From positions 9,476,635 through 9,540,634 of the forward strand of contig NC_087079.1 in NCBI RefSeq assembly GCF_026151205.1: a DNA stretch of 64,000 bases, read 5' to 3'. The notes beneath the pieces are model-generated. The model had not been told where the DNA came from and searched no databases. It saw only the letters and a list, made by a program, of their open reading frames with translations. Positions 5,430 to 37,251 of this stretch are shown one piece after another (within the stretch, counting starts at the first letter, position 1; the number at the start of each line of letters is the position of its first letter). Position numbers and translations under genes: made by a program. Source of the stretch: Bolinopsis microptera (lineage: Eukaryota > Ctenophora > Tentaculata > Lobata > Bolinopsidae).

Positions 5430-5530
5430 CTGTTTGTAGGTTTACAACCTACCAGGACGCGCGCCGAGTTGGACTCGTTGACGGTCCAATATATGGAACA
5501 GATATTTTACGAGTATCACCCGTTAACTAA
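5430..5530 (+). repeat. Dispersed repeat family X, copy 1
   Basis: Begins with the palindrome-like GTAGGTTTACAACCTACC, then GCGCGCCGAGTT, GGACTCG and GACGGTC, and ends near ACGAGTATCACCCGTTAA. The same ordered blocks recur at about 22110-22240 in the same orientation, and at about 14870-14970 and 33310-33410 in the reverse orientation. This shared block order defines a family but I cannot classify it. Confidence 0.6.
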
Positions 5531-5999: not shown

Positions 6000-6334
6000 G
6001 TCCGAAATGGGCCGTGTGCTGCTTCTAGGAAGTACATATGACAGTGCATATCAGCACACTGTTGGCTTTCTTAGAGACCTGATGAGAACCAAGCGGAAAT
6101 CATGATTGCCTGGTAAGCAAGTTCACACTCATTCCGAATGGCGGTAGACTTTACAGCTACACTGCAGCTTACACTGTAGTGGGAATCGCGTCACTGATAT
6201 CCTCCGAGCATAATTACCAGGATAAATCCTGTACCAATCACAGCTTGGTGACCTGGCCTGCCTGCCTCAGACGGGGTTTGAACCCCGGTCTTCCGCTTGG
6301 GAGGCGAGTGAATTACCACTACACCACCCGGCCG
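6000..6334 (-). repeat. tRNA-derived SINE with a tRNA-Gly(CCC)-like head
   Basis: On the minus strand, about 6334-6264 reads like a tRNA. Box A is TGGTGTAGTGGTAATTC. An anticodon arm has loop CTCCCAA (anticodon CCC, glycine) closed by TCGC/GCGG. Box B is GGTTCAAACC inside a GGGG/CCCC T-stem. The acceptor stem pairs only at its first three bases, so this is not a working tRNA but the polymerase III promoter head of a SINE. The non-tRNA body probably continues down to about 6000; its 3' end is not certain. Confidence 0.65.
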
Positions 6335-6544
6335 ACAAATTAAGACAAATATTAATATTTAATAGCATCATTTCGTAGATCATCAGAGAATGCATTTACA
6401 TCACTGCTTATAATATAATAACATGAGTTACACACCTCGTCAAATTCGGTATGTAACTCGTTTTATCCAACTCGTCAAACTCGTTGGATACAACTATTTT
6501 CACAACTCAAACATCAAAGTTGTGAAAATAATGTTATAAGCAGT

Positions 6545-6742
6545 GTTGTAACTGCTTATTATCACCTCTTCGACCTGTTGAACATGTACTTACCATAAAA
6601 TTTTGATTCACGATGTCAATCCTTCGCAGCTCGGTGAGGCACAGTGGTGCATCACGCCGATCTACCGAGAAGAATTATTTGATGCGCGGCGCGACCCAGT
6701 AGTGCATCGCGCTACAACATAAAAATGTAAACAAACAATTAT
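6545..6742. repeat. Repeat sequence flanking the 15 kb element, including a related empty site
   Basis: Holds ATCACCTCTTCGACCTG at about 6561, an uninterrupted version of the sequence split by the large element that starts at 6749. It also holds a block (about 6610-6665) that recurs inverted at 32966-33030, and a CG-rich block (about 6676-6715) that recurs inverted at 23585-23630. These belong to the same dispersed repeat complex as family X. Confidence 0.55.
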
Positions 6743-6845
6743 CACCTCTATGGTGGCCGAGGAGGGTCATTTTTAAAAATAAAATAAAAACCATACTCAC
6801 GTGGCCGAGGAGGGTCATTCGGCCGAGGAGGGTCATTTTTTAAAA

Positions 6846-7145
6846 ATGGCCCTGCTCGGCCATGGCCGAGCAGGGCCAAACAATATGACGAAGAAATGGC
6901 CCTCCTCGGCCATGGCCGAGCAGGGCCAAACAATATGACAAAAATGGCCCTCCTCGGCCATGGCCGAGCAGGGCCAAACAAGAAATGGCCCTCCTCGGCC
7001 ATGGCCGAGCAGGGCCAAACAATATGAAAAAAGTGGCCCTCCTCGGCCATGGCCGAGCGGGGCCAAACAAGAAATGGCCCTCCTCGGCCATGGCCGGGCA
7101 GGGCCAAACAAGAAATGGCCCTCCTCGGCCATGGCCGAGGAGGGT
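6846..7145. repeat. Left subterminal array of GGCC-rich palindromes
   Basis: About seven units of roughly 40-55 bases. Each unit is built on a near-perfect palindrome centred on TCGGCCATGGCCGA and flanked by CCCTCCTC or CCCTGCTC arms. Linkers alternate between AAACAAGAAAT and AAACAATATGA-type sequences. The long open frames here on both strands simply read through the repeat and are not genes. Confidence 0.9.
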
Positions 7146-8620
7146 CATTTTTAAAATTAAATAAAAACCATACTCACGTGGCCGAGGAGGGTCATTCGGC
7201 CGAGGAGGGTCATTTTTTTTAAATGACCAAAACATCGCGCGCGCAATGCGCGTCTTTTACTTCTTAACAATGTCACGCACAGCGGCTTACGTAAACAACA
7301 AGACAGCGTGGACATTTGCTAGAACACCTCCTCGGACTAAGTTTGCATAATCAATATTTCGGTTCGAATTATAGAACGGACATGTCATTGTCATCATCTT
7401 TATACTTGAAATCTTTTTTACAAAATGAAACACAGATGTAAAATAATGAATTTATAAGAGCATTATCCGAGAACCCTTAAACACTGCAATGAAACTCCGC
7501 TGAAAAATCTGTTAAGTAGGTGAGAATTTACCTACCATCGGAAAGTTCCAAAATCTATAGCTAAATCCAAAACGTTTACAATCATACACTCCTTGCACCT
7601 TGAGATACGGAGATTGAACAGCGAGACGGAAAATAAACGATGAGATAGATATTGAACACTAGGAGTTGGACGGACATTAAATACAGAGAGAACTATTTAA
7701 CACGAGATAGAGATTGAAAACTGAAAGACAGATATTAAACACTGCACAGTGAGACGGACAGTCAATACGCAAGGATACGGAGGGAAACACTGGGTCGGTC
7801 ATCAAACATAGAGGGAGACGGAGAATCGAGAGAGTAAACACTGAGTGACATAAACACTGATGTGCATGATTGTTGAACTACTCAAACTCTTTCCCCATTC
7901 AAAACATCAAATAACAAATGCTGTCAGTAGCAGATTGAAAAATAACATTGCATTACTTTAAGATTAAAATTATAACCATTCTGAGCTGCGAAAGTAGCAT
8001 TTGATGATTTGAAAGTGAATTTCAATCCTCCAACAAACTTTAGTAAAATACACGACGTCATATGTTTCAAAAGATTGTTATATTTTAAGCTACCCTTGCT
8101 TATTTAATTAACCTCGTGCTATTTGCTAAAGAGAGAATAGCATTAGCAGATCTAGTTCACGTCTTCATATTTTCATGTAATTCGATGAAGCCACAAATCT
8201 CACAGAGCTACAGAATTCAGTGATCGTCTACAACACCAATAAAACCTGAAAAAAATGGAAGTTATGATATACATTTTAGAAACTCCATTGCAACATATTG
8301 CAATAGATCATCTAATCCGGGGTATAGTATGATGTGAAATTTGAAAAGTATTTAATATAAAAGCAAATTGTTTATCTCGTTAGGAAAATTTATCAAATAA
8401 CCATGCGAATTGTGATAGCGTGCTACGACACCGTGATTAATGAATATAGTGTTCATCGTTTACTCTCAAATCTGGATCCTAATTCTACCAGCTTCACGGA
8501 ACTTAGAAAAGAACTTTCCTCTGCCACTACACGAAGGCCAACGCAGTAAACTTGAATGCTAAAGATATCTTTCTTCAAGAAGCACTCTAAAATTTGGATC
8601 AGAATGATAAACAATGAACC

Positions 8621-8842
8621 TTATGCCAAATTATTAGACGGAGATCGTCTACTGATATTTCTCCGGAGTTTGCAGTTCCACGACCGGAGACCATCTACGG
8701 TAATTTTGTTGATACTGTATGAATTAATCTCCGAGAAATTCCCGGAGAGCTTCATCTCCGTCTAATACAGTAGACGGAGCCGGAGAATCATCTCCGGAGA
8801 TGATCTACGGGAAATGGACCTCCGTCTAATAATTTGGCATAA
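8621..8842. mobile_element. 222-bp inverted-repeat element (MITE-like)
   Basis: The first 22 bases, starting TTATGCCAAATTATTAGACG, are the exact reverse complement of the last 22. The interior repeats CTCCGGAG and TCTACGG motifs, which can fold further. A decayed inverted counterpart sits near 19800-19870, as expected if it lay in an arm of the surrounding palindrome. No coding capacity; the frame at 8556-8765 crosses it by chance. Confidence 0.75.
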
Positions 8843-10049
8843 TATCCGGCCATGGAACTGGGGGGTAAACTGTTTTGGAAATATCTGTAAATTTTAAAAA
8901 TGTTTTTTATAAATGATGGCAACGTCTCGACTAAGACGTTGCCACCTCGACAGTCTGTCTATTGTGTAATCAAATTTTACCTAAGTTAAGTCAGATTCAC
9001 CACACCATCTGTACCTCAAATAGTCCACTGGCAAAATCATTTTCTACAGAACCCATATACTGTTGAATGGACTCTTTTAATTACAGGTAAGACAGATTGT
9101 GTCTGAATTATTATCTTTTATTCAGAGACCGTGTAGAGTTAGACTATATAATATATATTAAGTAACTGCACTTATACAAATTTCTGGAATCATTGCAGTT
9201 GTGTGATAAGTCATGTTTTAACTCTTAAGTAGTGTTCATGGTGATCATATTTTTGGATCCCAAAACTTGGGAAGCACTCAACACACCAGGCTGAAGCAAA
9301 ACTTTCCCCATTTCACCGTACGAGGTAAGATGATCTAAAAGTATGTACTCAGCTTACAACTTTACTCGTGGGACGAGACGTCCTGACTTGAGCCCCGAAA
9401 ATTATTGAAATTATATACAGTTAGTAATAAGTATGCATACATAAATATAATACCAAACAATGTACAATGTGGTTTGGCCATTGCTATATATTTAAAATAA
9501 AATAAATCTGCCATATAATTATAAAAAATTTAAAAAATAAACCTGAAGAAAGGAGATGGAGAGTACTGAGTAGTTTCAAAAACATACATAGAATTAATTA
9601 AATGTTAGACAGAATAAATGCAAGCTTGTATCATTTTATTTTATTTCTCTAGCTCCCAAGGACCCGTATTTTAGCCGTTCAATCTACTTTAGTCATCATA
9701 ACTGCCATTTAATTTAAATTTCTTCCTATTGATCGATAATTGTTCATGACTTTTACAACTTTACTCACTCCCGCATATTGTCATTCATCAGATCACTGTA
9801 TAATAATGTGAACGTCTTTAACTAGAATTTCTCCTCAGAAAATCAGAACTTGAGGTGCTGAAAAGATAAAGAAAACAAGGAAATCAAAGTCCGGGGCCAA
9901 ACACAATGAACAGTACAGCATTGTAGAGTAAAAAATAAACTCTTTTAAAATTGTGCCCTACAGATCAGTACAATTAGTTGCACTTGAACAGGTGGTTATA
10001 CAGTCCACTACCTCTTCAATCCTCCATATCAAGAGTATAAACAGGTGGC
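8843..10049. other. Left arm of the large palindrome, no gene seen
   Basis: AT-rich sequence whose degraded reverse complement lies at about 18.8-19.8 kb. I see no coding region, RNA gene or further repeat. Confidence 0.5.
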
Positions 10050-13000
10050 ACTCAGTGATAAAGGAAAAACCCCCACTAACATTTTCTCAACACAAAACAG
10101 GTACAAGAAAAAAATAAGGCCCACATAGGGTAAATGGTTTTTCGGGGCACGCCACTGCATTTTCCCGACGGTGCAAAAAATCCTTTTCGAAACAAAGATT
10201 AACAAATGGGGAAGCGAAAACAAAATTTATGTGAAGCTTGTGGGAAAACTAAAATGGGATTTTTGGTAACCCCTTAAAAAGGAAAAAATAATATTAATGA
10301 AAAATTATCTTTTTGTGAACAGAACAAGGTTTGAGACGTTTATTTGGATAAGCACGGGACATCCAGGTTAAAAATTTAATCATACATAACCCACAAGGCT
10401 ATTCAGAAGTGCAATACGGGTGGGCCTGCTGGGAGCCCCTTCCCCGCCAAGAAAAAACCTGAAGGGGGTTTCTTGGAAGGTAGTAAAGCTTCGAGACTCA
10501 GAGGGTTGGGAATCTATTTTCGTTTTTGTATATTGGGGAGTCTGGGGGGGGGGCTAGCAGGAGCCCAAAAAACTTGTGGGCAGGGCGAAAGGCTCCTTTC
10601 AGTCTTTTGGTGGCCAGAAACGTTGCCCAAAACAAAGAAAGAGCATCCAAAAAATTTTTAAAAAAATTCCCAATAGGAGCAAATAGCACCAGCCAGCTTT
10701 TTACAACTTTATAAAATATTGAAAAGTCGCCTAGAATTTCAAAAAGCTCAACATCCCAACCTACGCAGGGCCCTAAAGGGATTTGAACCGTGTGATTAAA
10801 AATAACCCCCATCAAAAAAAATGAGTAACCAGAAAAAGTTTGCAAACATTAAAAAATTGCCTTTAAAACTTTAAACTCCCAACAACTTTTACAGAATAAA
10901 TGTTAAAAAAAAGGGATAAAAAGTTATTCAAAAAAAACCCTTTATTAAGGAATGATTGTTTTAAAATTTTAATATAAATCCCGATTAAAACCCTATTACC
11001 TCAACTAGCTCAAAAATTAAATGATTTTCTTATGAAAAAATAAAAACTTTCAGTTACGTTAAATTTTCGGTTATTCCAAATCAAGGCCGTTAATTCATTG
11101 CTTAATCCAGGTAATTTTGGGTTTTTATTTAAAGGGCGTAGTGTTAAAGTGTAAAATGTGGATGTTAGTGTTTTGGCTACACAACAAATACAAGCGTCTT
11201 TAAATTTTGGGGTAATACATATGATCCAATTTTAAAAATCTTAATCATTTATCATAACTTGGTTCGTCTGTCAAAATAAAAATACTAGCAATAAATCAGG
11301 TTTGGAGGAAAGCTTAAAAGGTATACGTTTAAAAATAAATTAAACAACCAGGTTCAAAAAGCATCAGTAGTTGCAGACTGCAGAGGTTAGGGGTAGTTTA
11401 AAATCGTCACATTGGAACTAAACAGGGTTTTTTTGATTTTCTTTTTTTCACCCAATTAGATGTTGCACTGCTTCAAACATTCCAAAAACTTAAAAAAAAT
11501 AAAGCAGTTTAAACGAAAAAAAACCCAAAAATATTTTTATTAAAATGGCCACTTAAAATAAATAAATTGGGCTCAATTCAAATTGTACACATTTAAAAAA
11601 TGGATATTGAAGACCCAAAAATATAAATTTATAAATAACATTTACAATATTTTTCCCCTTATCCTTGAAAAAATAAACGGGAATTTAAACATAAATTTCG
11701 GATCAATTCGAAAGGTTTGAATATCCGAAAAGATATAATAATAATAATACTGGGTACTGGTGTCACAAAAAAAATTCTTAACGCCCTACTGACTTTAACT
11801 ATTTTTTTTATTGAAGGAAAAATTTAAACGTATATTAATTTATATCAAAAATTAATAAAGTGATGCAATTGGAGAGCACAAACGTTAATCTGACATAGAT
11901 ATCGTTATCCTTCGTACTCTTCTCCTCAGGTTTCGGGTTAAGGAGACAGGGGTTTTTTAAAGGGGGGTCCTGCCTTCTTGGCTTTCCAGTACCCTCAAAT
12001 TCTAGCACACTCCTCTTATTTTATATCCATGCTCAGGCGTGTCCGGTTTACAACCCCCTCTGTAGTCCTCCTTGGGTCTTGGGGTATAAACAGAAATTTT
12101 CCCCTTTAAAAAAACCTTTGGGCCCTAAAGCTCAGGTCCTTTCCCTCCGTAGTGGTAAATACGGGAAAACAAAAATCCCCTTTCTTAAATTTATTGTAGC
12201 CATGTTCTGCATAGGTTCTATTTTCATTCTCTGCAGAGTGAAAGGCTGGGGATGGTCTTTCTTTTTGTAGGGATTTAGGATTGAAAATACGTGTCAAAAA
12301 AAATCCTCTAAATGTCCCCATACTCCTTTTCTGATATATCGGCCTAGCCTTTTCAGTTTGTTCCCCTTTGTTGGAAGTTGGCGATTTTGGTTTTAAAACA
12401 GGGGCAAAAATCCTCAGTCACATCCTTGGTCCCCACCTATATTCGAACAGGTCTTCATGTTGTTATGACGGTAGTTCTTACTTTTGGGATATGATTGTGA
12501 CATTCTTGGCTCCATAATCAAGATTTTTGGGGGTGTTAGGGTTCCCAAACCCCCAAGATAAACGCACCCAAAGTTTTGCTCGCTATAGCAACCCTAGTGT
12601 TGATGGGAGACATGTTAGCCAACTCCTCCCCATTTCTTGTACCAGTGCGTGACCCCAGTATTTCATCCCTTACTTGAATTTCTCACAAGTCCTTCTTCAA
12701 GCAAATTCTTTAACAACTTGAGGCGTTAACTCTCCCCTTTATTTTAATTTTATCCAATTTATCGGGGAGTTCGGGTCTTTGATGAGGTCAACCATCCTCT
12801 TTTTTCTTGATGACTCTGGTTTTCCCTTTTCCGCGACTTATGGCTCACCTCCCAACCCCCCCTATTTTACGGTAGCGCAGAATTTCCTGTGCAGGTCATA
12901 CATTCCTACCAAAAATTGCCGGAAAACTTTTCCTTTTGTACACTTCTCAATGGGTGGAGGTATTAATATGTTCGGGGAGGTGCCATACAAAGGTCCCCGA

Positions 13001-16000
13001 TAAGGGGGTTTGTTAAAATGGGGGCTGCCTGGGTCATCAAGAGAAATTTCAAACTCTTCTACGTCCTCTCCCCTATCACTTTCCCCAATATTTTCCCATT
13101 TTGACTCTTTCCAGTATCTCCAAAAAAAACATGGCTGCTGGTATTACCTTTTTGGGGCCCCCTTTAGGATAAGAATAGTCTTCATTTTTTGGGGGAAGCC
13201 AACTTAGGACCTTTCAAACTGAGTAAACCCAAAACAGCCCGGGTTTCTTCAGAAACTCTGCTGCAATCCCACACCCTCGCTTGCACAATTGAACTATCGG
13301 TTTTTTCGGGCCAGTATTTCGGGTTAACCCACGTTTTGATTAATTACCGTTTTATCAAAGTTTGGTGTGGGTTTAACTTCTCGCAGGGCTCCAGATGTCA
13401 AAGGACTTCCGGTTACCAGGAAAATTCTTTTGCTTGGTCAATCTTTAAATCTTTTAAGACTCTTTTTAAAATTTTTCCCTATTAAAAGTTCCTTATTCTT
13501 TCTCAGGGTATCAATATCAATGACAATACGGAAAACAAAATGTAATCAAATTAATCGTCAAAAAAGAAAACCCTAAAAATGAAAAAGGGGGTTTAAAAAT
13601 GCAAAATAACACTAATAAATTCTAAAGTATTCTTGTGAAAATTTGGGAAGTATTGCTTTAGGCCGTTTTTCATACTATAACACGGTGACTTTTCGAAAAA
13701 AAGCGCGGCGACCTAAAATTTGGTTCCTTAAGAATTAATTTTTTTGCCAAATTTATATTTGATGCTTTTAAAATTAGTCGAAATTAGTAGACGTACGAAA
13801 AAAATTTCGAAAATTTTTTTTAATTTTTAAATTTTTGTTTACAACTACCAGAGGCGGCACATTAAGAAACGCTTTCCGCTAAAAACAAAAAACGTTGTCG
13901 ATACAAAGTGAAAATGAAAATTTTGCGGGGCGCGTCCAAATTTCCAAGCAAAGAAAGTGCGCAACGTGATCAATTTTTTCCCAAAAGCCTTTTTTTGCTT
14001 GGGCCGAATTTGCAGTTATGCCATGCAACAGGGTTTATGTAAAGGGGAAAATAATATTTTATGTACGATAATGCTGTCATTAAAGTTTTTTCGCGTTCTT
14101 GTCAACACTTAATTTTAGCAAGTTTTTTAAGAGTATCCCCCGTTTTACTGGGCGGGGGCCGCGCTCACCCTGTAATCCCCCAAAATCCATCAACTTAAAA
14201 GCTGGGGTCCTCAGGAAAAAAACCCCCCGAAAACCCTTTAAAACCCCTTTCGGAACCCGATGTTGCTTTAATTTGAACCTGTATGACCCCCCGCGCACGA
14301 AGTCCCGGGGGCTCCCCTTTTCGTCGAAACATACATTATATGAAGCGACGTGGGGTCACCACGTATACAACTTTAGGGGTGTCATGTTGGAAAAAAACCC
14401 TCGGTAAAAATTTGCCGCTGGCAGTTACTAAATTGTTTTTATAACGCTGTACTGCCAAAATTGACCGATGTAAATTCTCGCCTGGGCGAGGCACAAAAAG
14501 CTTTTTTGCGATTAGCATAGGGAAATAATTGGTGCGCACGCGCACAGTAAAAATCGCGCCAAGGCCCTGGAGCTGCCGTAAATTTCCTGGCCTGACTTGG
14601 GCCCTTAATTGAAAATTAAATGCTTTTTTAAAACAGTTATACTGGTAAAAAAAAACATTTGACCGTAACGGGTTCAACTCGGCGATCATTTATTTTGGTT
14701 TTTAAAATTTTGTGCGCGTGCACTTTTTGGGGGCCCCGCGCGCATCCATATTTTTTCTCCAACCAGTATGCAGATCGGGGAGATGCGAAGGGTTGACATC
14801 GTGAATAAGTTATTAATTATGATATAAATTTAAAAAATAAATTTTTTATATATTTAAAAATTAACGGGTGAACCGTAAACAGTAAATATATGTTCCCTTA
14901 CAATATTTTGGACCGTCGACGAGTCCAAAATAGCTGGGCCCCGTCCTGGGAGGTTGTAAACCCACAATTTTAACCTTTTAAACCTATATAAAAATTTTTC
15001 AAATTTTTTCTGTCGTTTTAATCGCTAATTTAGCATCAAATTTAAATTTTTGGCAAAATAATTAATTCTTAATGGAACCAAATTTTAGGTGCCCGCGCAA
15101 AATTTTTGAAAATGACACCGGTTTTTGTATGAAAATCGAGCGCTAAAGCAATCTGCCCCAATTTTTTTACAAGAATACTTTGTAATTTATTATGTTTCTT
15201 TGCATTTTAAACTCCTTTTTTTCACTTTATTGGTTACTTTTCGACGATTAATTGATTAAAAATCATGTTTTCTCATTGTCTTGATATTGGTCACATTGAT
15301 GAAAAAAATAAGGAACGTTAAAAAGGGAAAAAAATTTTTGAAATCTTAAAAGATTCCCAAAAATTGGCCAATGCAAATGATATGTGCTGGTAACGGGAAA
15401 TCCTTTGTAATCTTAGGGGCCCCTGAGAGAAGTTACCACACCAAACTTTGATAATCAATGAAAACAGAATCGTGGATTATACCCCATAACTACTGGCCGT
15501 AAAAACCGGTACTAGCTTCAAATTTATGCAAGCTGGTGTGGGATGATTGCCGCAGGTTCTCTAAAAACTCGGGGTGTTTAGATTTACCAGTTTGAACGGG
15601 CCCCAAGTTAGGCTACTTCCCCCAAAAAAAGAAGGACTTTTTTATCTAAAGGGCCCAAAAGGGACTACCCCCCTGTTTTTATTTAGTACTGGATAAGATC
15701 ACATGCGATGGGGACATCATCTGGGAAAAAGTGAAAGGGGGAAGGGGGGCGTAGAAAAAATTGTCAGAAAATTTCCCTTTATGCCTCAGGGAGCCCTACA
15801 TTGTTACCAAAAACCCCTGTCATCGGTGGGCCCTTTTTGATGCCACCCCTCCAAAAAATTTAATACCTTTTATCCCTTGGAGAAATGACAAGAAAAAGTT
15901 CTTCGCATTTTTGGTAGGAAAGGACTGCCCACAGGAAATGTCTGCGCTACCTTAATGAGGGGGGGTTTTAGGTTTTAGCCAGTAGAATCGCGGGAAAAGG

Positions 16001-19000
16001 AAACCAATCACTCAAAAAAAAGGAGGGGTTACCCCCATCTATGACCGGGAAAATCCCTGTGAAGTTGGATAAATTAAGATAAGGGGGAAATTTAAAAGCC
16101 CCAAGTTATTAAAAAAATTACGTTAAGAAGGGGCTTCTGGGAAAATAATTCAAGTGAAGTGGATGGAATCTAGGGATCCGCAACGGGGACAAGAAACAGG
16201 GTCAGGGGCTTGGGTAAACATTTTTCCCCATTCAACCTGGGTTTGCTTATACGAGCAATTCAGAGATGCTGTTTTCTTGGTGTGGTTGGGACATCCCCCA
16301 CCCCCCGAATCTTGATTATGGGGCAAAAATTTCAAATCAAATTTTCCTCAAATTTAAAAAACCGCTAACAACATGAGAGACTCTGTTGCTGAAAACCTTT
16401 GCGGTGACCAAATTTAGCTGAGGTTTTGCCCCCGTTAAAAACCTATGAATCACCAACTTCCCCAAAAAAAGGGGAACAAGCGATATAAAAGGGGGCTCGA
16501 TAATCGCAAAGGATTGGGCACATTGGAAAGGGCTTTTTTTGAATGGTATTTCAACCTAAAAGCCACAATCAAAAAAGACCTGCCACACTTCACTCTAAAA
16601 TGAGAAATAGAACCGTATGCAGAAAAGGTGTAAATAATTTAAGAAAGGGTATTTTTTGTCCCCCCCTGTTTTACCCCTACGGGGAATGGCACCTGACTTG
16701 AGGCCAATTTTTAAAGGGATTGCTGTGTTAACCACCAAAAAAAAGGGGGGATCACCAGGAGTGTAAAAATAGGCACCCTGGGATGGATTTTAAAAACTAA
16801 AAAGGGGGTGTGCTAGTAGCATTAAGGGGGTTTTAAAGCCAAAAAAAAAAGGGATGGGCCCCCCCAATATCCAATGTTCCTTCAACCTGTACCTGGGGAA
16901 AGCTACGAAGGTAGACGTTCTATTGCTCAGGATTACGTTTGTCTCTGCCAATTTTCACCTTGATTTAATTTTTTGTATAAAATATATTTTTTCTGTTTTC
17001 ATTTTTTTATCTTCAATTAAAAAAAAGCTTAATGTCTGGTCTTTTGAATTTTTTTGTGAACCAGGAAAAACCCAAAAATATTTTTTATTAATCTTTCTGG
17101 AAATTTAAAACCTTTTGAATTTTTCTCGAAATTTTTTTTAAATTCCCCTTTTAGTTTTTAGGGATAAGGGGGTAATATTTAAAAAAGCTATTGTTAAAAG
17201 TCTCTTTTTGGGTCTTCAAGTACCATTTGGGTTTTTGGGACAATTTTTAAATTGCAGCGAAGATTTATTGATTTTAATTGGCCTTCTTTAAAAAAATATT
17301 TGCGTTCTATTCTTTTAAAAGCTTTATTTTTAACTGTTTTAAAAATTTAACTGCAAAGATCAATGCGGGGGGAAAACAAGTCAACCAAACCGATGCTTTG
17401 TTCCCTGTGACTGATTAATCTACCTCCCCAACCTCGCAGTCGCAACAAAGCTGCTTACTTTTTAAACCCGGTTGTTATAAAAAGTTTTTTTTACATCCTT
17501 CAAACTTCCCCAAAAACGATTTTTTGCGTATTTTATTTCTGAGAAATGAACCAATTATGATTAAAATTTTTTTATTAAGTTTAAACATAATCTTTAAACC
17601 AAAATTAAGATCGCTTTTATTTGTTTCGTGGGGAAAAAAAAAATCACATCCCATTTGAATAAAAAATCCCCTTTTTCCTAAACACTAAATTTACTGGGGC
17701 CCCTAAACAAAGATCTCGGCCGTGATTTTTGAATAACCCCAAATTTAAAAATTCTAAATGTATCTATTATTCACTAAAAAAAAACATTAATTATGACTAG
17801 TACCTGGTGTAATAGTGCTTATGTAATCTGATTTTATTAAATTAATAACAAGCATTCCCCTTTAAAAAATTGTCTTTTTATAATTTTTTCCTTTTTTTTA
17901 ACATTTTTGAAAAATTTTTTTGTTCTAAAGTTTAAAGGAATTTTTGAAAGTTTTGCGATACTTACTCGGTTTCTCTTTTTGTGATGGATTATTTTTAATA
18001 AAAAGCGGGGTCATAATCACTTGAGGCCATGTGTATTGTTGGGGCTTTCAGCTTTTAATTCCCAGGGGGGCTTTTTGCAATGGATTTTAGAATTTTCAAA
18101 AAAGCTTAGCTGGGCATTGTCTCCCATTTCATGGGAATTTTATTAAATTGTAGTGGGGCGTCTCTCTCTCTCTTGTTTTTGGGCAACGGTTTGGGCCCCA
18201 TAGACTTTAAAGGGGGGTTTCCCGGGCCCCCAATGGGACTCCTGCTACCCCTCCCCGGCTCCCTAGAAATTTAAAAACATAAATTAAAAATATCAACAAC
18301 AACCTCTATCTCGAAGCGTTTTTTTTCCCTTTCGGCAAAACCCCCTTCAGATTTCTTCTTTGGCGGGGGGCAGGGGCCCCAGCAGGTCCCACCGAATATG
18401 GTTTTACTACTGAGTATCCTTTTGGGGCTAGTTTATTATTTTTGAACCTTTTTATGTCCTAGTCTTTCCAAATGATCGCTCAAACCTTTTGACTTTCCAG
18501 AATTTTTAAAGTTCGAGTTTTTATTATGAGTTCCTCAATTTTAAATTTTTCCAAAAAATCCTCATTCTATTGTCTCATGGGTCATTCCATGGAAGTTTGT
18601 GATGTTTCTGCTTCCCCGGGGGTGTTCACGTCTTGGTTTTTAAACGGAGTTGTTTTTCCGTTGGAAGTATCTAGTGGGGGGTCCCATTACCCTTTTGCCC
18701 TTGATGTGATACCCGTGATGTTTATTTTCTTTACCTGTTTTGTTAAAAAATTTTTGGGGGTTTTTCCTTTATCACTGAGTGCCCCCTGTTTTTACTTTTG
18801 ATAGGGAAATTTAAAGGGAGTGGGCTGTATACCACCTGTTCAGGGAACCCAATTTTACTGTTGTAGGGCACAATTTTAAAAGAGTTATTTTTTACTCTAA
18901 ATCTGTATTTTTATTTGTTTCCCCGCTTGATTTCCCTTTTTTTTTCTTTTTTTTTTCACACCTCAAGTTCTGATTTTTGAAGGGGGAAAATTTTAGTTAA

Positions 19001-21290
19001 AGACTTACATTATTATACTGATCTGTGAAAGACAATAGCGGGGGGTGATAAAGCTTAAAAATCATGAAAAATTATGATCAAAAGGAGAAAGTTAAATAAA
19101 GACGTTTTGCTAAAAGTAATTTAAAATAAAAAAGGGGCTTGGGGGCTAAAAATTTAAAATAAAATAACAAGCTTGCATTTTTTGTCTAAATTTAATTTAA
19201 TTTTATGTTTTTTTTGAAATAATATCTCCCCTCCTTTTTTAGGTTTATTTTTAAATTTTTTATAATTTTTGGGGAATTTATTTTTTTAAAAATATACAAT
19301 GGCCCCAAAACCCCAAAGACATTTTTGTTTAAATTTTTTTGCATATTATTCTCTTTTAAAAAAATTTTTAATTTAAATTGTCCATAAAAAAAAATTTTAA
19401 CATTTACTTTTACATTTACCCTACAAATAAATTTTCTTACCTTTTTTATTTCCCCCAATTTTTCCAAAAAAACACCATAACACTCTAAAAAAACATAACA
19501 CCCAAATCAATACCCCCAAAAAAATTTAAACAACAAAATAATTAATACAACTTCCTGAATAAAATAAAAATTTTTAAACCCCAACTTTCTTCCTAAAAAA
19601 ATCCCTTCAAAAAATGGGTTCTTAAAAATAATTTGCATCTTTGAGGGACAATTTGAATCTACTTTAAATTGGGAAAATTTTATTCACAATAGCAACTTAG
19701 GGGGGCAACGTTTAGTCAGACGTTCCCTCTTTATTTAAAAAAAAATTTTCAAAATTTTACAGAATTTCCAAAACATTTACCCCCCATTCCCCGGCCGGTA
19801 TTATGCCAAAAATTATTAACGGACCATTTCCCCCTAAAAATCTCCGGGGGATACTCTGCTCGTTCGATTAACGGGGATGAAGCTTTCCGGGGAATTTCGG
19901 GAATAAATTCCATATCAAAAAAATACCGAGAGGTCTCCTCGTGGGGCTCAAATCCGGAAAATTCATGACGATCTCCCTAAAAATTTCATAAGGGGTTTAT
20001 TTTTATCATTTGATCCAAATTTTAGGGGCTTCTTGAAGAAAAATATCTTTTTAAACAATTTATGCGTTGGGCCTTGGGTATGGCAAGGGAAAATTTTTTC
20101 TAAGTTCCTGAAGGGGAAATTAAACCAATTGAGATAAACGGAACCTATATTATTAATCCGGTGGGCGGCACGCTATCCAATTTGCTGGTTATTGAAAATT
20201 TTTTCCCAAAGAGTAAAAATTTTCTTTTTTAAATTTAAATCTTTTTAAATTTCACTCAATTACCCCCCATTAGATATCTTTGCAATTTGGCAAGGGGGTT
20301 TCAAAATTATAAATTAATTCATTTTTTTTAGGTTTTTTTTTTTGTAGACGATCACGAATTCGTCTCTGTGGATTTGTGGGTTCATCGAATTACTCTCACG
20401 CGACTTGATGAAATAGAAACGTAATAGATCGCTAATGCTTCTCCTTTAGCAATACACGGGGTTAATTTAAAAAGCAAGGGTAGCTTAAAAAATTAAAAAA
20501 ATCTTTTGAAAATATGAGTTGTTTTATTTTACTAAAGTTTGTTGGGGGATTAAATTCATTTCAATCATCAAAGTACTTCGCAGCCAGAAAGGTTATAATT
20601 TTTAAACTTAAATTGCAATGTTTTTTTAATTGCTACTGAAGCATTTGTTATTTGATGTTTTGAAAGGGGGAAAAAAGTTTATATTCAAAAAATCTTAATC
20701 AGTTTTATTCATCGTTTTACTCTCTCGATTTTCCGTTCCCCCCAAATTTGATGACCGACCCCCGGTTTTTCCCCCCTACCTTGCTATTGGTCCTCTCCTG
20801 TGCAGGGTTTAAAACTTTTTCATTTTTTAAACTCTATTCGTTTAAATAGTTCCTTGTATTTAATGTCCGCCAACTCTGTTTCAATTTTAATTCATCGTTT
20901 TTTTCCGTCTCGCTGTTCAATCTCCCATCTAAGGTGCAAATGTATGATTTAAACGTTTTGGTTAGTATAAATTTTGGGAAATTTCGATGGATAAATTTCA
21001 CCTATTAACAATTTTTTACGGGGTTTTTTTCATTTTAAGGGGGTTTTCCATATGTTTAAAATTTTATTTTTTTACATCTGTGTTATTTTGTAAAAAAAAT
21101 TTTAAGTATAAATAACAAAACATTTTTATAATTCAAACCAAATAGGGTTAGAAACTTTTCCAAGGGGCTACAATTCCAGGTTTTTTGTTGTTTACAACGC
21201 TGTCTGACTTTTTTAAAAGTAAAGACGCCATTGCGCCGCATGTTTTGGCATTAAAAAAAGACCCCCCCCGAATGACCCTCCCGCCCCCTG
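10050..21290. other. Low-quality sequence: inner arms and spacer of the palindrome
   Basis: From about 10050 to 21290 runs of four to ten identical bases (A, T, G and C) become far more frequent than on either side. Where the region overlaps its clean inverted counterpart (7.3-8.2 kb against 20.4-21.2 kb), the differences are largely homopolymer expansions, small indels and clustered miscalls, not an ordinary substitution pattern. This looks like uncorrected long-read consensus. All open frames in it (for example 14336-14689 minus and 13189-13485 plus) are unreliable and none shows a family motif. Confidence 0.6.
14860..14975 (-). repeat. Dispersed repeat family X, copy in the palindrome spacer
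   Basis: In reverse complement it shows TTTACAACCTCCCAGGACG, then GGACTCGTCGACGGTC and CACCCGTTAA in the same order as the copies at 5430 and 22110. A nearby block at about 14280-14370 matches 22825-22900. The spacer of the palindrome therefore contains the same repeat complex that flanks it outside. Confidence 0.5.
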
Positions 21291-21315
21291 GTATGGGTTT
21301 TTATTTAATTTTAAA

Positions 21316-21668
21316 AATGACCCTCCTCGGCCATGCCGAGGGAGGGCCATTTCTTGTTTGGCCCTGCCCGGCCATGGCCGAGGAGGGCCATTTTTGTCAT
21401 ATTGTTTTGGCCCTGCTCGGCCATGGCCGAGGAGGGCCATTTCTTGTTTGACCCCGCTCGGCCATGGCCGAGGAGGGCCATTTTTTTCATATTGTTTGGC
21501 CCTGCTCGGCCATGGCCGAGGAGGGCCATTTCTTGTTTGGCCCCGCTCGGCCATGGCCGAGGAGGGCCACTTTTTTCATATTGTTTGGCCCTGCTCGGCC
21601 ATGGCCGAGGAGGGCCATTTCTTCGTCATATTGTTTGGCCCTGCTCGGCCATGGCCGAGCAGGGCCAT
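21316..21668. repeat. Right subterminal array of GGCC-rich palindromes
   Basis: The inverted counterpart of the array at 6846-7145: about seven units centred on TCGGCCATGGCCGA with the same two linker types. Sequence quality recovers here. The outer 100 bases (about 21665-21765) mirror 6749-6845 almost base for base. Confidence 0.9.
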
Positions 21669-22099
21669 TTTTAAAAAATGACCCTCCTCGGCCGAATGAC
21701 CCTCCTCGGCCACGTGAGTATGGTTTTTATTTTATTTTTAAAAATGACCCTCCTCGGCCACCATACACCTCTTCAACCTGCTGAACATGTACTTACTTAT
21801 ATTATTTTTAAAGTAAACAAACAATTATCAACATCACCTCCCCGCCAGTATCCACATCTATTAATATTAATATTATATTAATATTTGATATTATAGTACT
21901 TCATGCAGTTCGAACTGAAGTTGGTTGACCAACTGTTTAAATCAGTTTCAGTTCTCACACTAATTTTCCCTACACAGTACACCCCGTCTTACTTGGGGAC
22001 CTCAGACTATTATGTTCATAAACATAAACCGAATACAGAATAGAGATTCGGCGGAATGACAGGCTGAAAGCTGAGCGCGGCCCAGTAAACGCCGTCAGC

Positions 22100-22240
22100 A
22101 TTTCTATATTTGTAGGTTTATAACCTACCAGCAAGACCAAAGACGCGCGCCGAGTTGCAAGTTCAATTAAGTTGGACTCGTCGACGGTCTATAAATATTT
22201 GAAACAAATATTTTACGACTACGAGTATCACGCGTTAATT
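22100..22240 (+). repeat. Dispersed repeat family X, copy 3
   Basis: Contains GTAGGTTTATAACCTACC, GCGCGCCGAGTT, GGACTCGTCGACGGTC and a degenerate ACGAGTATCACGCGTTAA in the same order as the copy at 5430-5530, with a longer insertion before GGACTCG. Confidence 0.6.
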
Positions 22241-23160: not shown

Positions 23161-23649
23161 TTAGGTGCAAGTCGAAATCTAATCGCGCCCCATCATTTTA
23201 CATTTTATACTATGAACGCGAACGATAAGCTTCAGAACAAATCTTAAGTCATTAAAATGCTTGTGCATTGTGTTGTGGATTGAGAAGAAAGCTTTGCATT
23301 TGATAACCAGAAAATAATCAAAATAGAAAGCTAAAGAGACATTTGCATTTTAAAATTTAAAAAACAAAAGCTCTTTTGCCGTTGCCTTAATCAAAATTTT
23401 ACACTTTTGACTAAAACGTTTACCATTATATTTATATAACCATGCCATAAGTAAAGCTGTTTCTGTAAGTAACCAGTATAGTAACGTAAGTATGAAATAC
23501 GTTCCATGATCATCACGATCGAAATATGAAATATACTGGAACTTCGAAGCTAAATAATATCCTATTAGCTTAATTGTTTGTAGCGCGATGCACTACTGGG
23601 TCGCGCGCGCATCAAATAATGCTTCTCGCAATAACAGTAGTGTGCAAAC

Positions 23650-26200: not shown

Positions 26201-26445
26201 TTAATAGCTCAGTCACTGAGTGCCCAATTGAAATAATTGGTTCTGGTATGACTTACTACCACCACTGGTTCGAGAAATTTGTCAAATCGAAACATATTTG
26301 TGTTCATTGTTTTCAAAAGAAGGTTCATTTTCGCATTTATTTGATAGTTTGGATAATCGGATCGAGCCAAATTTTATTGAATTGTGTTTAGCCATTTAAA
26401 TTACGTTTGCTCTAAAAAATGAGAGTATATATATATTACTCATGC

Positions 26446-26502
26446 AACTAAGATAAATTGAGTATAAATACTCAATTTATCTTAGTTTAAGTTGCAAGTT
26501 AT
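26446..26502. repeat. Long perfect hairpin at the start of the duplicated unit
   Basis: The stem ACTAAGATAAATTGAGTAT is followed after two bases by its exact reverse complement, and the pairing extends through GCAAC/GTTGC with a small bulge. The second copy lies at about 27690-27746. It looks like a small foldback element. Confidence 0.7.
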
Positions 26503-27469
26503 ATAACTCATTTTCTAAAGGTCTCGTAAACTTTAATCAATTACAGAGAGTGTGGCCTCTTTTTCACTGAAAAGACGCCATCAGATTTCATTGCATTCTG
26601 GGACCAATTTTGGTGTGATTTAAAGTATCCTACAAATTGGTGTTTACTGTTTCGACTTTTGTAAAATCACTGTAACAATATAATCTGTATTCTTATAGTT
26701 TCAACCATAATAGTGAAATAGAGGGGCTGGCCAATAGCCACACCCTCTGTAATTTATTTAAGTCTACGAAACTTTCAGAAATTTGTGTGTAATTCGGAGA
26801 TAAATTAAACAAGTTGTTATCGGCCACCATGTGTAAACGGAATGTTCTAGCAGACTGTATAATACTATAACATACATTTTCTTACACACACATAATCTAA
26901 TCTCTGGAATGTTGCTATGATATCAATGGCAATGTTTTGATACTGTGTATTATCATGATTATGCCTTACAGGCCGATCTTCCGATGGAGTTTCGGTTGCC
27001 ATGGCAACACATCAATATTATAAAGAATTTGTAAACGCAGTCACAACTCTGTCGTGTACACTGTACGGTGCGAGCGGTTATTTTATGATAGGTAACATCT
27101 ACTTTTTCAGCATTTGCGGGATGACCAGTTCACACGTATATTTTCGCAGACACAACTTCGCATAAAATTATATCCAATTATTCTATAACCAATTATCTAC
27201 ACGGACTTCTGTCTAAATATGAATGAAATCGAGAAAACCAAATATTATATGTTTCATCCTGAAGTTCTGAGTTCTCAGGCAGTAAAATCATGATCCTGAT
27301 AGATATCGAAGTCTCCTTAAATGATTGTCTCTGCTGCTTAATATATCTGGATTGTCGTTGGGAGGCGATGCAGATTTGTTTACTTTTAAGGGGGAGGTTC
27401 TGCTCAGCAGGAGAAAGAGGTGATGCACATTTTGTATTTGTCTGACATGTAGGACTTGAGCCACGTTTC

Positions 27470-27665
27470 CGTAAGTGCAATAAACGGTAACGAGTGGTTT
27501 TTGGATTTCTCCTGAATAAGAGCTGAGATTTTTGGCACTTCCCATATACTCGCACTTGATGCACAGGATTCATGGACTGGACATTTAAGACGAGGCATGA
27601 GGAATAACGGGCACGTGCAGTGTATCCTCTGAGGCGGTAGGAACTGCTGGTAGTGGTATAGTGGG
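27470..27665 (-). pseudogene. Non-LTR retrotransposon endonuclease fragment, copy 1
   Basis: One minus-strand frame (27688-27404) contains SLPFIALTETWLKSYMSD, matching the start of the AP-endonuclease domain of CR1/Jockey-like ORF2 proteins, where the ETWL motif is characteristic. The frame then breaks and no reverse transcriptase follows. It is a decayed remnant truncated at the duplication boundary. Confidence 0.65.
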
Positions 27666-28669
27666 TAGTATATATATATATTACTCATGCAACTAAGATA
27701 AATTGAGTATAAATACTCAATTTATCTTAGTTTAAGTTGCAAGTTATATAACTCATTTTCTAAAGGTCTCGTAAACTTTAATCAATTACAGAGAGTGTGG
27801 CCTCTTTTTCACTGAAAAGACGCCATCAGATTTCATTGCATTCTGGGACCAATTTTGGTGTGATTTAAAGTATCCTACAAATTGGTGTTTACTGTTTCGA
27901 CTTTTGTAAAATCACTGTAACAATATAATCTGTATTCTTATAGTTTCAACCATAATAGTGAAATAGAGGGGCTGGCCAATAGCCACACCCTCTGTAATTG
28001 ATTTAAGTCTACGAAACTTTCAGAAATTTGTGTGTAATTCGGAGATAAATTAAACAAGTTGTTATCGGCCACCATGTGTAAACGGAATGTTCTAGCAGAC
28101 TGTATAATACTATAACATACATTTTCTTACACACACATAATCTAATCTCTGGAATGTTGCTATGATATCAATGGCAATGTTTTGATACTGTGTATTATCA
28201 TGATTATGCCTTACAGGCCGATCTTCCGATGGAGTTTCGGTTGCCATGGCAACACATCAATATGATAAAGAATTTGTAAACGCAGTCACAACTCTGTCGT
28301 GTACACTGTACGGTGCGAGCGGTTATTTTATGATAGGTAACATCTACTTTTTCAGCATTTGCGGGATGACCAGTTCACACGTATATTTTCGCAGACACAA
28401 CTTCGCATAAAATTATATCCAATTATTCTATAACCAATTATCTACACGGACTTCTGTCTAAATATGAATGAAATCGAGAAAACCAAATATTATATGTTTC
28501 ATCCTGAAGTGCTGAGTTCTCAGGCAGTATAATCATGATCCTGATAGATATCGAAGTCTCCTTAAATGATTGTCTCTGCTGCTTAATATATCTGGATTGT
28601 CGTTGGGAGGCGATGCAGATTTGTTTACTTTTAAGGGGGAGGTTCTGCTCAGCAGGAGAAAGAGGTGAT

Positions 28670-29040
28670 GCACATTTTGTATTTGTCTGACATGTAGGAC
28701 TTGAGCCACGTTTCCGTAAGTGCAATAAACGGTAACGAGTGGTTTTTGGATTTCTCCTGAATAAGAGCTGAGATTTTTGGCACTTCCCATATACTCGCAC
28801 TTGATGCACTAGGATTCATGGACTGGACATTTAAGACGAGGCATGAGGAATAACGGGCACGTGCAGTGTATCCTCTGAGGCGGTAGGAACTGCTGGTAGT
28901 GGTATAGTGGGAGCGTTGTTCCTGGCTGAAGAGGTGGATGTGGTCTGGGGTAGTGGTAGGGCATTTGAGTTTGAGGGAGGCTGGACCGGTGGTCGACTAT
29001 TTCTGATAGGAGTCCGATCCTGGTTTGCATCGTTTCCAAC
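28670..29040 (-). pseudogene. Non-LTR retrotransposon endonuclease fragment, copy 2
   Basis: The same endonuclease start (IALTETWL) as in copy 1, but here the 5' flank extends to about 29040 with a proline-rich stretch that may be the ORF2 leader. A one-base difference at about 28809 puts the leader and the endonuclease in different frames. No catalytic region beyond the first motif survives. Confidence 0.6.
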
Positions 29041-32962: not shown

Positions 32963-32965
32963 TAG

Positions 32966-33415
32966 ATCGGCGAGATGCACCACTGTGCCTCACCGAGCTG
33001 CGAAGGATTGACATCGTGAATCAACTTAATTGTTAATGGGCGGCGCTCAGCATGTCATTCCGCCGAATTTTTATTAGCTTGACGGATGTTACTCGTCTAA
33101 ATCTTTCGAAATAGCGCGCACCGCTTTCGTCTCAAAAAGAAAACAACATTAGCGCGACGCCACGCGCAATTCACTAATGTGTAATGGGCAACGCCGCGCA
33201 TATCATCCAATAATATAATGCTTATCGCAACCACTTTGATATATTGGCGAGATGCACCACTGGGACAGTGGTCACGCTGAGCTGCAAACAATTTACTCGG
33301 CCGCTCTGAGCTTAACGGGTGATACTCGTAAAAGATTTACTCCAAATGTTAGGACCGTCGACGAGTCTAACTCGGCGATCGTTCTGGTAGGTTGTAAACC
33401 TACAACGCTCAGCCT
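32966..33415. repeat. Dispersed repeat complex (family X, inverted copy)
   Basis: 32966-33030 matches 6610-6665 in reverse complement. 33310-33410 carries ACGGGTGATACTCGTAAAAG, GACCGTCGACGAGTC and GGTAGGTTGTAAACCTAC in the order expected for an inverted family X copy. The intervening CG-rich stretch is related to the flanks of the 15 kb element. Confidence 0.6.
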
Positions 33416-33741: not shown

Positions 33742-34647
33742 TTATACTTCGTCCGAAACATACCAAAAATGACTGTTATTTACAGATCCGTTTAAAATAG
33801 TCTCTTTTTTGAAAGCCTCTAATCTCATTTTAAAACTTAACACAGTCCCACAATTCTTGACATCTGAGGGGAGTTTGTTCCAATATGGTCTCACCCTCTC
33901 CGGAAGAAAAGAACTGTGGACTTTCTTCATTTTACTGCTACTTTTACTGCATCTACTGTTTGATTTATTTCAATCAATGATACCACATTAAGACCAGATC
34001 TGCTCATACTGAACAAACCAGCTCCGTAGTTGGCCAAACCACTTATCATTTTAAAGATTCAATGAGGTCCCCACGTATTCGCCGCTCTGCCAGCGTTGTT
34101 AAATTGAGGATTTCCAGTCGACGACTGTATGGAAGAGTACCCACCTCGTCAATCAGACGGGTAAACCGCCTCTGGACGCTCTCCAGCTCCAAGATGATCC
34201 CCCAACTTCCATGAGCCGCAACTGGACTCCACAATTGAACACAATACTCTAAATGGGGTCTTATCAAAGCTTTGTAAATGGATATCATCACAGATTTTTC
34301 CCTGATAATCAGATTTCTAACAATACAACATATCATTCTGTTGGCTTTAGATATTGAAGCCTTAATCTGTTCATTCCAAAGCAGAGAGTTATGGGTTACA
34401 ACTCCCAAGTCTTTTTCCTGTACAGATTCTGCCAATGTAACTCCATTAAGAGAATAACTTGATCTTGGGTTATCTGTTATCGTTAACATCTAAATGCATT
34501 ACTGAACACTTAGTAGGATTAAACTTTAAAAGCCATTTACTCTCCCACATCTCTAGTTCATTCAGATCATTAACTATAGTTTCATGCTCGGAGGCATTAG
34601 CTATAAGCTTAAGATCATCAGCAAATATTTTAACTTTACTTTTAATG
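33742..34647 (-). pseudogene. CR1-like non-LTR reverse transcriptase, C-terminal half, broken
   Basis: Reading from 34647 downwards, the first frame holds FADDLKLIA, the reverse transcriptase catalytic motif C (F-A-D-D). After a break near 34470 the frame 34489-34046 carries ALIRPHLEYCVQLW and RRFTRLIDEVGTLPYSRR, typical of the thumb and C-terminal region. A third segment (33930-33742) has RVRPYWNKLPSDVKN, the usual C-terminal block. At least two frameshifts or stops make it inactive. It begins exactly where the 6.1 kb inverted-repeat element starts, so the 5' half was probably interrupted or lost there. Confidence 0.85.
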
Positions 34648-34876
34648 TAGGGCCTGTCGTGATATCATGGATCGCTTAGGTTCCACCAGGATCTGGTAGT
34701 CCTCATAATTCTGCGGCCTCTATGTATCGTCATCTCGTACAACTCTTTAAGAATCTTAGGGATTTGAAAAAAAAATGTGAAAATTTGCAGCCTTCCAGGC
34801 ATTGATTGGGTTAACGAGGTGTCGTACGTCACCTCAAGATCGGGTGACAGGGGGCTGACCAGGCCAGAACCCAATT

Positions 34877-35775: not shown

Positions 35776-36839
35776 AATTGATTGGGTCTGAGGTCACGTG
35801 ATTATGAGCCTGAGGTCACGTGACTATGACGTCACCAGACCTTGTTCTCCGTTTCCCGCTCATTGGACCAGGTGAGCTTGCATGCTTGTGAATGTGGGTG
35901 TAAGTACAGCTGTACTGTAGTTTATACCTAATTAACCCCTATAGAAACCGAAAATTTATTTTCTGGCAGAAAGCTAGAAATTTACCAAAATATCGAAATT
36001 GTTATAAATTTATTTTGATGACCATTCCTGACCTAAAATTGCACGAGAAATCGATTAAACTTGGTTTCAGGACTCAACAATGCTTTTTTATGCCTTACAA
36101 TCCATGTTTTATCGATACAATCAACATTATGATCCCGTTGATTAATTAGTAACAGGTACCTAACAAATACGCAGAAACAACCATCACACCTAGATTGCAT
36201 TCCTAACGGGTCGATTTCGAGTGACCAATAATCGTCGTGATGATACGTCATGTGTTCCTGATCACTGTTGAAACAGTTATCTCACTTTGTAACTGCATAT
36301 GTATCGAGGATAGCTTTACAAATAAGAGTATCAGTAAATAAAATTGCCACAAGTGTTTCTTTCACTCACTTCCGATAAGACACATTGGAAATTCTTACTT
36401 CCATAAGATTATATAATTACTCACGTTCAAATTGCATGACCAATGACTAAAGATGTTAAATTAACTTCGATATTAGGTAAACAATTATCCATAAAAACAT
36501 TTTCTGTGTCTTCCTAACTAGAATTGTAATCGTTTTGTAGACGGAAACATTCGGGAATTGAAAATGTTAACATGATCTTACACCAGAACAGAACCTTTAC
36601 ATTGAAGAGTTTTACTTTTTTCTCTTCCAAGTAGTTCATTATACCACTTGCTATTGAACGTTCAAAAATTACGAATTAGCCATATTATATCAATCAAATG
36701 AATCCGGCTGCAAAGAGCAAAGTTGCCATTTCTATTTTGTTTGTACTCAAATCTGTTACTTAATCAAACAGATTTGTCTTACCCTGAACTGTTAGATCTT
36801 GCACCGACAACAGGGCACTCCTCCTTCGCTTATTTGTTG

Positions 36840-37130: not shown

Positions 37131-37251
37131 TGTTATTAAAAGTCTGTAGACTATTCTTTGTACCTAATTGAGGATTGAAAGTTTGGGAAAAGACCATGGT
37201 CATTAACCGTGCTACCCATTTCTGCAGATAGCCTGTTACAAATCAAAAGTT

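What the first reader, a model, noticed from the sequence alone, without database searches (positions are those of the whole stretch)
6743..21771. 15 kb near-palindromic element with exact 6-bp target duplication and a related empty site
The inverted ends, the CACCTC duplication on both sides and an uninterrupted relative of the target (about 6559-6595) together show an insertion event, not just a foldback. Arms of about 7 kb face each other over a 1 kb spacer, and no known transposase or polymerase is visible. A long-armed element of this size with GGCC-palindrome subterminal arrays matches no family I can name.
Basis: partly seen in the sequence, partly recalled or inferred. Interest (0 to 1): 0.75.

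Follow-up and report, generated by a model that had tools for sequence, protein, structure and literature searches.

The report
Long-armed transposon, interior badly sequenced
A 15 kb piece of DNA appears to have jumped into this probably animal genome and left a 6-letter footprint; its ends look like a known jumping-gene group (IS3EU), its two halves look like mirror copies, and most of its inside is error-filled sequence that would hide any genes.

Summary
The insertion is real as read: inverted ends (6749, 21765), exact CACCTC on both sides, and a relative of the empty site at 6558-6593. The arms (6749-13831; 14977-21765; spacer 1,145 bp) align at 71-79%, but mostly not through age. From about 10.05 to 21.3 kb the sequence shows long-read-type damage: gap events per mismatch 1.92 and 0.98, against 0.16 in 16 control repeat pairs; 158 of 167 right-arm mismatches copy a neighbouring base. 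Identical arms damaged twice simulate to 70.5% identity; 71.5% is observed. Finding no transposase is uninformative there: two domains damaged similarly vanished from Pfam.

Ends TATGG..CCATA plus a 6-bp duplication match the IS3EU/GingerRoot description. Best reading: an IS3EU-like transposon in foldback form with subterminal GGCC-palindrome arrays. A palindrome made in assembly from a folded read is not excluded; only about 450 bp of the right arm are independently clean. No genome is held, so other copies could not be sought.

The parts
6743..6748 (.). left copy of the 6-bp target duplication CACCTC
21766..21771 (.). right copy of the 6-bp target duplication CACCTC
6749..13831 (+). left arm (long terminal inverted repeat); clean to about 10.05 kb, damaged beyond
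14977..21765 (-). right arm; damaged except for about the last 450 bp
13832..14976 (.). 1,145-bp spacer; its halves are not self-complementary beyond chance (score 21; 50 shuffles: mean 19.8, largest 27); holds a dispersed repeat at 14861-14967; damaged
6749..7228 (+). left terminal module: TATGG end, GGCCGAGGAGGGTCATT motifs (6755, 6803, 6821, 7133, 7180, 7198) and an array with 7 GGCCATGGCC palindromes in ~41/48-bp units
21316..21765 (-). right terminal module, essentially clean (inner edge uncertain by some tens of bases); same array with one extra ~49-bp stretch and its own base differences from the left one
10050..21316 (.). block with raw long-read type errors (left edge: change point at 10,061 and arm-gap asymmetry ending near 10.0 kb; right edge from the arm alignment only, because the homopolymer statistic does not resolve it inside the array)
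6558..6593 (+). related uninterrupted copy of the target (34 of 36 identical)

Best explanation
A DDE-type DNA transposon of the IS3EU/GingerRoot kind, in foldback form, inserted here. A transposase (from this element or from an autonomous relative) would bind the repeated GGCC-palindrome motifs near both ends and the TATGG..CCATA tips, move the element, and join it to target strands staggered by 6 bp; host repair left CACCTC on both sides. Its terminal inverted repeats have grown to about 7 kb each, leaving a ~1.1 kb spacer, as in foldback elements. Shown: ends, duplication, empty-site relative, arrays at both ends, colinear inverted arms in the record. Inferred: the superfamily (from ends and duplication length only), transposase binding to the arrays, near-identity of the arms in the real DNA, and that the arms are not an assembly product. 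Split of belief: genuine insertion 0.93; IS3EU/GingerRoot-like 0.65; long arms real in the genome 0.6.
For: Terminal inverted repeats 98% over 360 bp; exact 6-bp duplication and empty-site relative. Ends TATGG..CCATA fit TA..TA plus 6-bp duplications (PMC10045372) and TAYGG..CCRTA (PMC12730594). The two clean ends differ by single bases and by one 49-bp stretch of the array, so they are two separate sequences, not one end read twice. The arms are colinear over 6.8-7.1 kb, and their 71.5% inner identity is close to that of identical arms damaged twice (70.5%, sd 0.7, simulated; 69.5% with 2% and 67.9% with 5% true divergence). Clean right-hand sequence stops about where the array ends, as expected if identical arms collapse in a short-read assembly (inference). 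Foldback precedents: Galileo, Tetris.
Against: No transposase found (0 of 18 six-frame pieces of 6749-21693 at E up to 1; 0 of 6 for the clean left part at E up to 10). Between 7257 and 10379 there is no stop-to-stop frame of 90 aa or more. One copy only; no genome to search. The target is itself a local repeat, so CACCTC occurring twice is a little less striking than in unique DNA. The right arm inside ~21.3 kb rests on damaged sequence alone. Known hairpin-induced nanopore errors affect the sequence after the inversion junction (PMC7229812), whereas here the spacer and inner left arm are damaged too, so the cause of the damage is not fully explained. The damage simulation is only roughly calibrated: one-sided damage simulates to 79.4% where 76.1% is observed.
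Confidence: 0.5

Rival explanations
1. Real transposon insertion, but the palindrome is false: a folded (template plus complement, or amplification-chimera) long read was used to bridge a gap between clean contigs ending near 10.05 kb and 21.3 kb. The real element then has terminal repeats of at least ~450 bp and an unknown interior.
For: The damaged block runs without a break through inner left arm, spacer and right arm, like a fill by one poor read. The inner arms behave much like one truth damaged twice, which a folded read would also give. Bridging at a repeated end array is where such an error is easy (inference).
Against: A simple folded read would continue into the left flank, not into a different right flank that carries the matching target half; a 1,145-bp spacer without self-complementarity does not fit a simple template-complement fusion; the fill must meet the right contig at the array (inference).
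Confidence: 0.3
2. A Maverick/Polinton-type element (large, 6-bp duplications, inverted ends) whose genes are hidden by the damage.
For: Length 15 kb and 6-bp duplication fall in the range published for intact vertebrate elements (12.7-24.6 kb; PMC8097293, passages).
Against: Published vertebrate end motifs are AG- or AGT-repeats, not TATGG; published inverted repeats are 46-1,447 bp, not 7 kb; a palindromic body would leave room for about half the gene set (inference).
Confidence: 0.06
3. A transposon of another superfamily with 6-bp duplications (for example hAT6, mentioned in PMC12730594, or a Mutator-like foldback with a short duplication).
For: Most foldback elements are said to be Mutator-like (PMC4079207, passages), and MuDR-type duplications are given as 4-10 bp (PMC10045372, passages); hAT families with 6-bp duplications exist.
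Against: Tetris foldbacks have 8-10 bp duplications; TATGG..CCATA together with 6 bp fits the IS3EU description.
Confidence: 0.12
4. An old foldback whose arms truly diverged by 20-29%.
For: Face-value alignment.
Against: Gap events per mismatch about 6 and 12 times the total of 16 control repeat pairs (single controls range from 0.00 to 0.56); in the arms 230 transitions to 400 transversions; right-arm errors copy neighbours (158 of 167, against 23 of 167 for the left arm and 61 and 54 of 144 in natural repeats); adjacent-identity excess 1.52 against 1.06 outside.
Confidence: 0.02

Closest known systems
IS3EU/GingerRoot superfamily of DNA transposons
   Same: TA..TA ends (TATGG..CCATA fits TAYGG..CCRTA) and 6-bp target duplications (PMC10045372 section 3.3; PMC12730594 passages)
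   Different: arms of ~7 kb in a palindromic body; transposase not seen (not judgeable in the damaged block)
Galileo long-armed copies (P superfamily), e.g. copy 112 of Drosophila willistoni
   Same: very long inverted repeats with tandem repeats in them, no transposase segment, flanked by target duplications (PMC4168063 passages)
   Different: 7-bp (three copies 8-bp) duplications; arms of 4.2-4.7 kb; another superfamily
Foldback elements such as Tetris
   Same: inverted repeats with internal tandem arrays around a middle without apparent coding capacity (PMC4079207 passages)
   Different: 8-10 bp duplications; arms up to 1.7 kb; array units ~220 bp instead of 41/48 bp
Maverick/Polinton
   Same: size and 6-bp duplication (PMC8097293 passages)
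   Different: end motif, inverted-repeat length, palindromic body

Membership tests
IS3EU/GingerRoot | TA..TA ends (TET-bearing IS3EU of rust fungi: TAYGG..CCRTA) | tested here: met
   element runs TATGG...CCATA; signature
IS3EU/GingerRoot | 6-bp target site duplication | tested here: met
   CACCTC/CACCTC, 6 the longest exact match at the junction; one copy only
IS3EU/GingerRoot | IS3-like DDE transposase | tested here: inconclusive
   0 Pfam matches in 18 six-frame pieces, but the small control suggests such damage erases known domains
IS3EU/GingerRoot | other copies in the same genome with the same ends | not testable with these tools
   no whole genome held
Foldback element (structural class) | long inverted repeats with internal tandem repeats around a small middle | tested here: inconclusive
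   arms 7.1 and 6.8 kb with arrays, but the inner right arm rests on damaged sequence alone
Maverick/Polinton | AG/AGT-type end motifs and inverted repeats of at most ~1.4 kb (as published for intact vertebrate elements) | tested here: not met
   ends TATGG; arms ~7 kb in the record
Maverick/Polinton | integrase, protein-primed polymerase B, capsid genes | tested here: inconclusive
   no matches, mostly in damaged sequence
Galileo (P superfamily) | 7-bp (rarely 8-bp) target duplication | tested here: not met
   6 bp; Galileo values

The most novel reading that the evidence does not exclude
A mobile element of the IS3EU kind whose whole 15 kb body has become two nearly identical 7 kb inverted arms, possibly with a gene set in each arm, kept identical by conversion or by a hairpin intermediate that is copied from one arm: larger than the long-armed elements read here.
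Probability: 0.15. Interest if true: 0.65.

Novelty: new variant of a known kind. Interest (0 to 1): 0.35.

Why it matters
If the arms are real, IS3EU-like elements can take the foldback form with arms longer than those of the foldbacks read here, and such a locus is a hard case for assembly. If they are not, the locus is a worked example of how a mirror-image 'giant element' and an apparent lack of genes can come from a raw gap fill. Either way, the neighbour-copying and gap-ratio checks used here help to tell sequence damage from evolutionary divergence with the assembly alone.

Tried and rejected
Old divergence of the arms was rejected. Pfam six-frame scans at E up to 1 gave no match in 18 of 18 pieces covering 6749-21693, nor in 6 of 6 for 6749-10050 at E up to 10. 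A phage blastn of 6749-13831 gave no match. An end-motif scan of IMG/VR found 6 contigs with one exact match each; with no repeated motif in any of them I did not follow them. Rfam at gathering scores: 0; tRNA: 0. The hairpin-in-nanopore mechanism (PMC7229812, parts 1 and 2 of 4 read) explains a shorter, base-skipping second arm but not the damaged spacer and inner left arm, so I do not adopt it as the full cause.

Literature: GingerRoot with transposon and terminal inverted, 4 papers; IS3EU with terminal inverted and genome, 12 papers; IS3EU or related terms, 536 papers with two of three terms, 8 listed; foldback terms, 10 papers; Maverick terms, 56 papers, 20 listed. I read passages, or in one case one section, of those cited and saw no palindromic IS3EU; this is not proof that none is in print. 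The satellite table of the oyster paper PMC8268682 names IS3EU for two satellites (passages); Styx (PMC10853768, passages) is a gene-bearing relative of IS3EU; neither bears directly on the arms.

Limits of the controls. One search compared 20 pairs picked by hand from the blastn list: 2 are the arms, 2 involve the damaged spacer copy 14861-14967 (0.86 and 1.00, shown apart), and 16 are controls (69-1,241 columns, 76.6-99.6% identical, single ratios 0.00-0.56; some share a copy or a family). The neighbour test used 12 repeat pairs and left out mismatches next to gaps; without that rule the arms give 171 and 27 of 181. The power control is one damaged replicate each of a PAN frame and of the first 256 bases of the FLYWCH frame, three forward frames each; the clean FLYWCH E-value is for the whole 288-aa frame, and the clean fragment was not scanned alone. 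The damage model takes the clean left arm as the truth for the right arm, and it under-damages: one-sided simulation 79.4% against 76.1% observed. In one search the joined 160-bp flanks score 64 against 6481-6680; one other tile (start 23500) scores higher, 86, which I attribute to the left-flank repeat 6666-6717/23578-23628 and not to the junction; I did not print that alignment.
Full report
Observation. The ends are as described. The left end begins TATGGTGGCCGAGG at 6749 and the right end is its mirror image at 21765; the outer 360 bp are 98% complementary without gaps. CACCTC stands at 6743-6748 and 21766-21771 and is the longest exact duplication at the junction. Joining the flanks gives a sequence that is 34 of 36 identical to 6558-6593. 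A 31-base pattern written from the two copies matches at 6563 and 21766 only, with up to 3 mismatches; 100 shuffles gave none. The target lies in a local repeat (GTAAACAAACAATTATCA at 6727 and 21813).

Anatomy. blastn aligns 6749-8999 with 21765-19654 at 79.5% and 9426-13831 with 19350-14977 at 71.1%. The spacer 13832-14976 is 1,145 bp and its halves are not complementary beyond chance (score 21; 50 shuffles: mean 19.8, largest 27). It holds a copy (14861-14967) of a repeat also found at 5434-5526 and 33312-33405, so at least that part is of a kind dispersed in the surrounding DNA. Both ends carry arrays of 41- and 48/49-bp units with the palindrome GGCCATGGCC (7 exact copies in each end segment, none outside the element) and repeats of GGCCGAGGAGGGTCATT; GGCCGAG/CTCGGCC occurs 36 times in the element and twice in the rest of the window. 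A second copy of the terminal module lies at 7132-7228.

The interior is damaged sequence. Between the arms, gap events per mismatch are 1.92 (outer) and 0.98 (inner). In 16 other repeat pairs of the window, 69-1,241 columns long and 76.6-99.6% identical, the total is 27 gap events to 164 mismatches, 0.16 (single pairs 0.00-0.56). Two comparisons with the repeat copy inside the spacer give 0.86 and 1.00. Adjacent identical bases are in 1.52-fold mean excess over composition in the 1-kb bins from 9,001 to 20,000, against 1.06 (sd 0.08, largest 1.22) in the bins outside 6,001-22,000; the bins from 10,001 to 22,000 are 1.41-1.67. The left edge is sharp: in the 13 bins from 6749 to 9998 there are 39 gap events with bases missing in the left arm and 312 with bases missing in the right, while beyond that both arms miss bases about equally; the change point of the neighbour statistic is at 10,061. 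On the right, clean sequence resumes at about 21.3 kb, judged from the arm alignment; the neighbour statistic does not resolve that edge, because the array itself is rich in doubled bases. In the zone where the left arm is clean (7150-9980), 22.6% of single bases but 4.6% of bases in runs of four or more are missing in the right arm. At 167 mismatches without adjacent gaps the right-arm base equals a neighbour in 158 cases and the left-arm base in 23; in 12 natural repeat pairs the figures for the two copies are 61 and 54 of 144. The right arm is thus a degraded reading, with lost and overwritten single bases.

How similar are the arms really? Applying the error rates seen in the outer zone twice to one sequence gives 70.5% identity (sd 0.7), 10.4% mismatches and 11.8% gap events; the inner arms show 71.5%, 11.3% and 10.6%. 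With 2%, 5% and 10% true divergence added, 69.5%, 67.9% and 65.3% are expected. The model is only rough: one-sided damage simulates to 79.4% where 76.1% is observed. So the arms could be essentially identical, and the data do not call for old divergence. This holds whether the second arm is in the genome or is a folded copy made during sequencing or assembly.

Is the mirror structure real? For: the last ~450 bp of the right arm are clean and differ from the left end by single bases and one 49-bp stretch, so both ends exist; the right flank is the other half of the target; the spacer does not suit a simple template-complement fusion (inference). Against: everything between 10.05 and 21.3 kb is one damaged block, which suits a gap filled with a poor read. 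The published effect of inverted duplicates on nanopore reads (PMC7229812, parts 1-2 of 4 read) begins at the inversion junction and shortens the sequence after it. The right arm is indeed shorter in the clean-left zone (2,470 against 2,831 bases), but the spacer and inner left arm are damaged too, so this is not the whole cause. I put 0.6 on real long arms.

Coding content. Six-frame pieces of 6749-21693 gave no Pfam match at E up to 1 (18 of 18 pieces), and the clean left part gave none at E up to 10 (6 of 6). Between 7257 and 10379 there is no stop-to-stop frame of 90 aa or more. As a small control, a PAN frame (E 1.8e-12 clean) and the first 256 bases of a FLYWCH frame (E 1.5e-8 for the whole clean frame), damaged once each with the same rates, gave no match in any of the six forward-frame translations. 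The missing transposase is therefore no evidence about the damaged interior; it is evidence only for the clean outer 3.3 kb.

Identity. IS3EU families have TA..TA ends and usually 6-bp duplications, GingerRoot 6-bp duplications and mostly the same ends (PMC10045372, section 3.3 read). TET-bearing IS3EU of rust fungi are described with 6-bp duplications, inverted repeats longer than 30 bp and ends TAYGG..CCRTA (PMC12730594, passages). This element fits both. Intact vertebrate Mavericks share size and 6-bp duplication but have other ends and inverted repeats of 46-1,447 bp (PMC8097293, passages). Galileo and Tetris show that foldback forms with long arms and internal tandem repeats occur in other transposons (PMC4168063, PMC4079207, passages); the internal repeats of Galileo of Drosophila buzzatii are said to carry extra transposase sites, which is the model I use for the GGCC arrays. 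Membership stays unproven without a transposase or other copies.

Limits. The window's genome is not held, so copy number, other duplications and read support could not be tested. That the host is an animal is my inference from its gene content (PAN and FLYWCH frames); the species is unknown. That the damage comes from long reads, nanopore in particular, is inferred from its pattern; no reads were seen.

Noticed in passing
34644-40744: A second element-like structure: inverted arms 34644-34876/40518-40744 (96%) and 35776-36264/40033-40521 (99%), with about 900 bp extra in the left arm; ends GTAGGGCC..GGCCCTAC without an obvious duplication by eye.
   Followed up: partly
26426-28911: Tandem direct duplication of about 1,245 bp, 99.6% identical.
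   Followed up: no
44505-45368: 288-aa open frame with a FLYWCH zinc finger (E 1.5e-8).
   Followed up: partly
3-452: Open frame with PAN domains running in from the left window edge (E 1.8e-12).
   Followed up: no
5434-5526, 14861-14967, 22170-22238, 33312-33405: A short dispersed repeat, one copy of which lies in the element's spacer.
   Followed up: partly
6603-6717: Left flank pieces recur inverted at 32963-33024 (98%) and 23578-23628 (96%): small dispersed repeats next to the insertion.
   Followed up: no
38554-38863: Imperfect hairpin-like repeat, arms 125 bp, 90% complementary, 21 bp apart.
   Followed up: no
61243-62040: 266-aa open frame with no Pfam match and no PDB match at E up to 0.01.
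   Followed up: partly
34049-34489 (-), 60207-60683 (+): Frames that resemble the C-terminal part of LINE reverse transcriptases by eye (recalled; no Pfam match).
   Followed up: no
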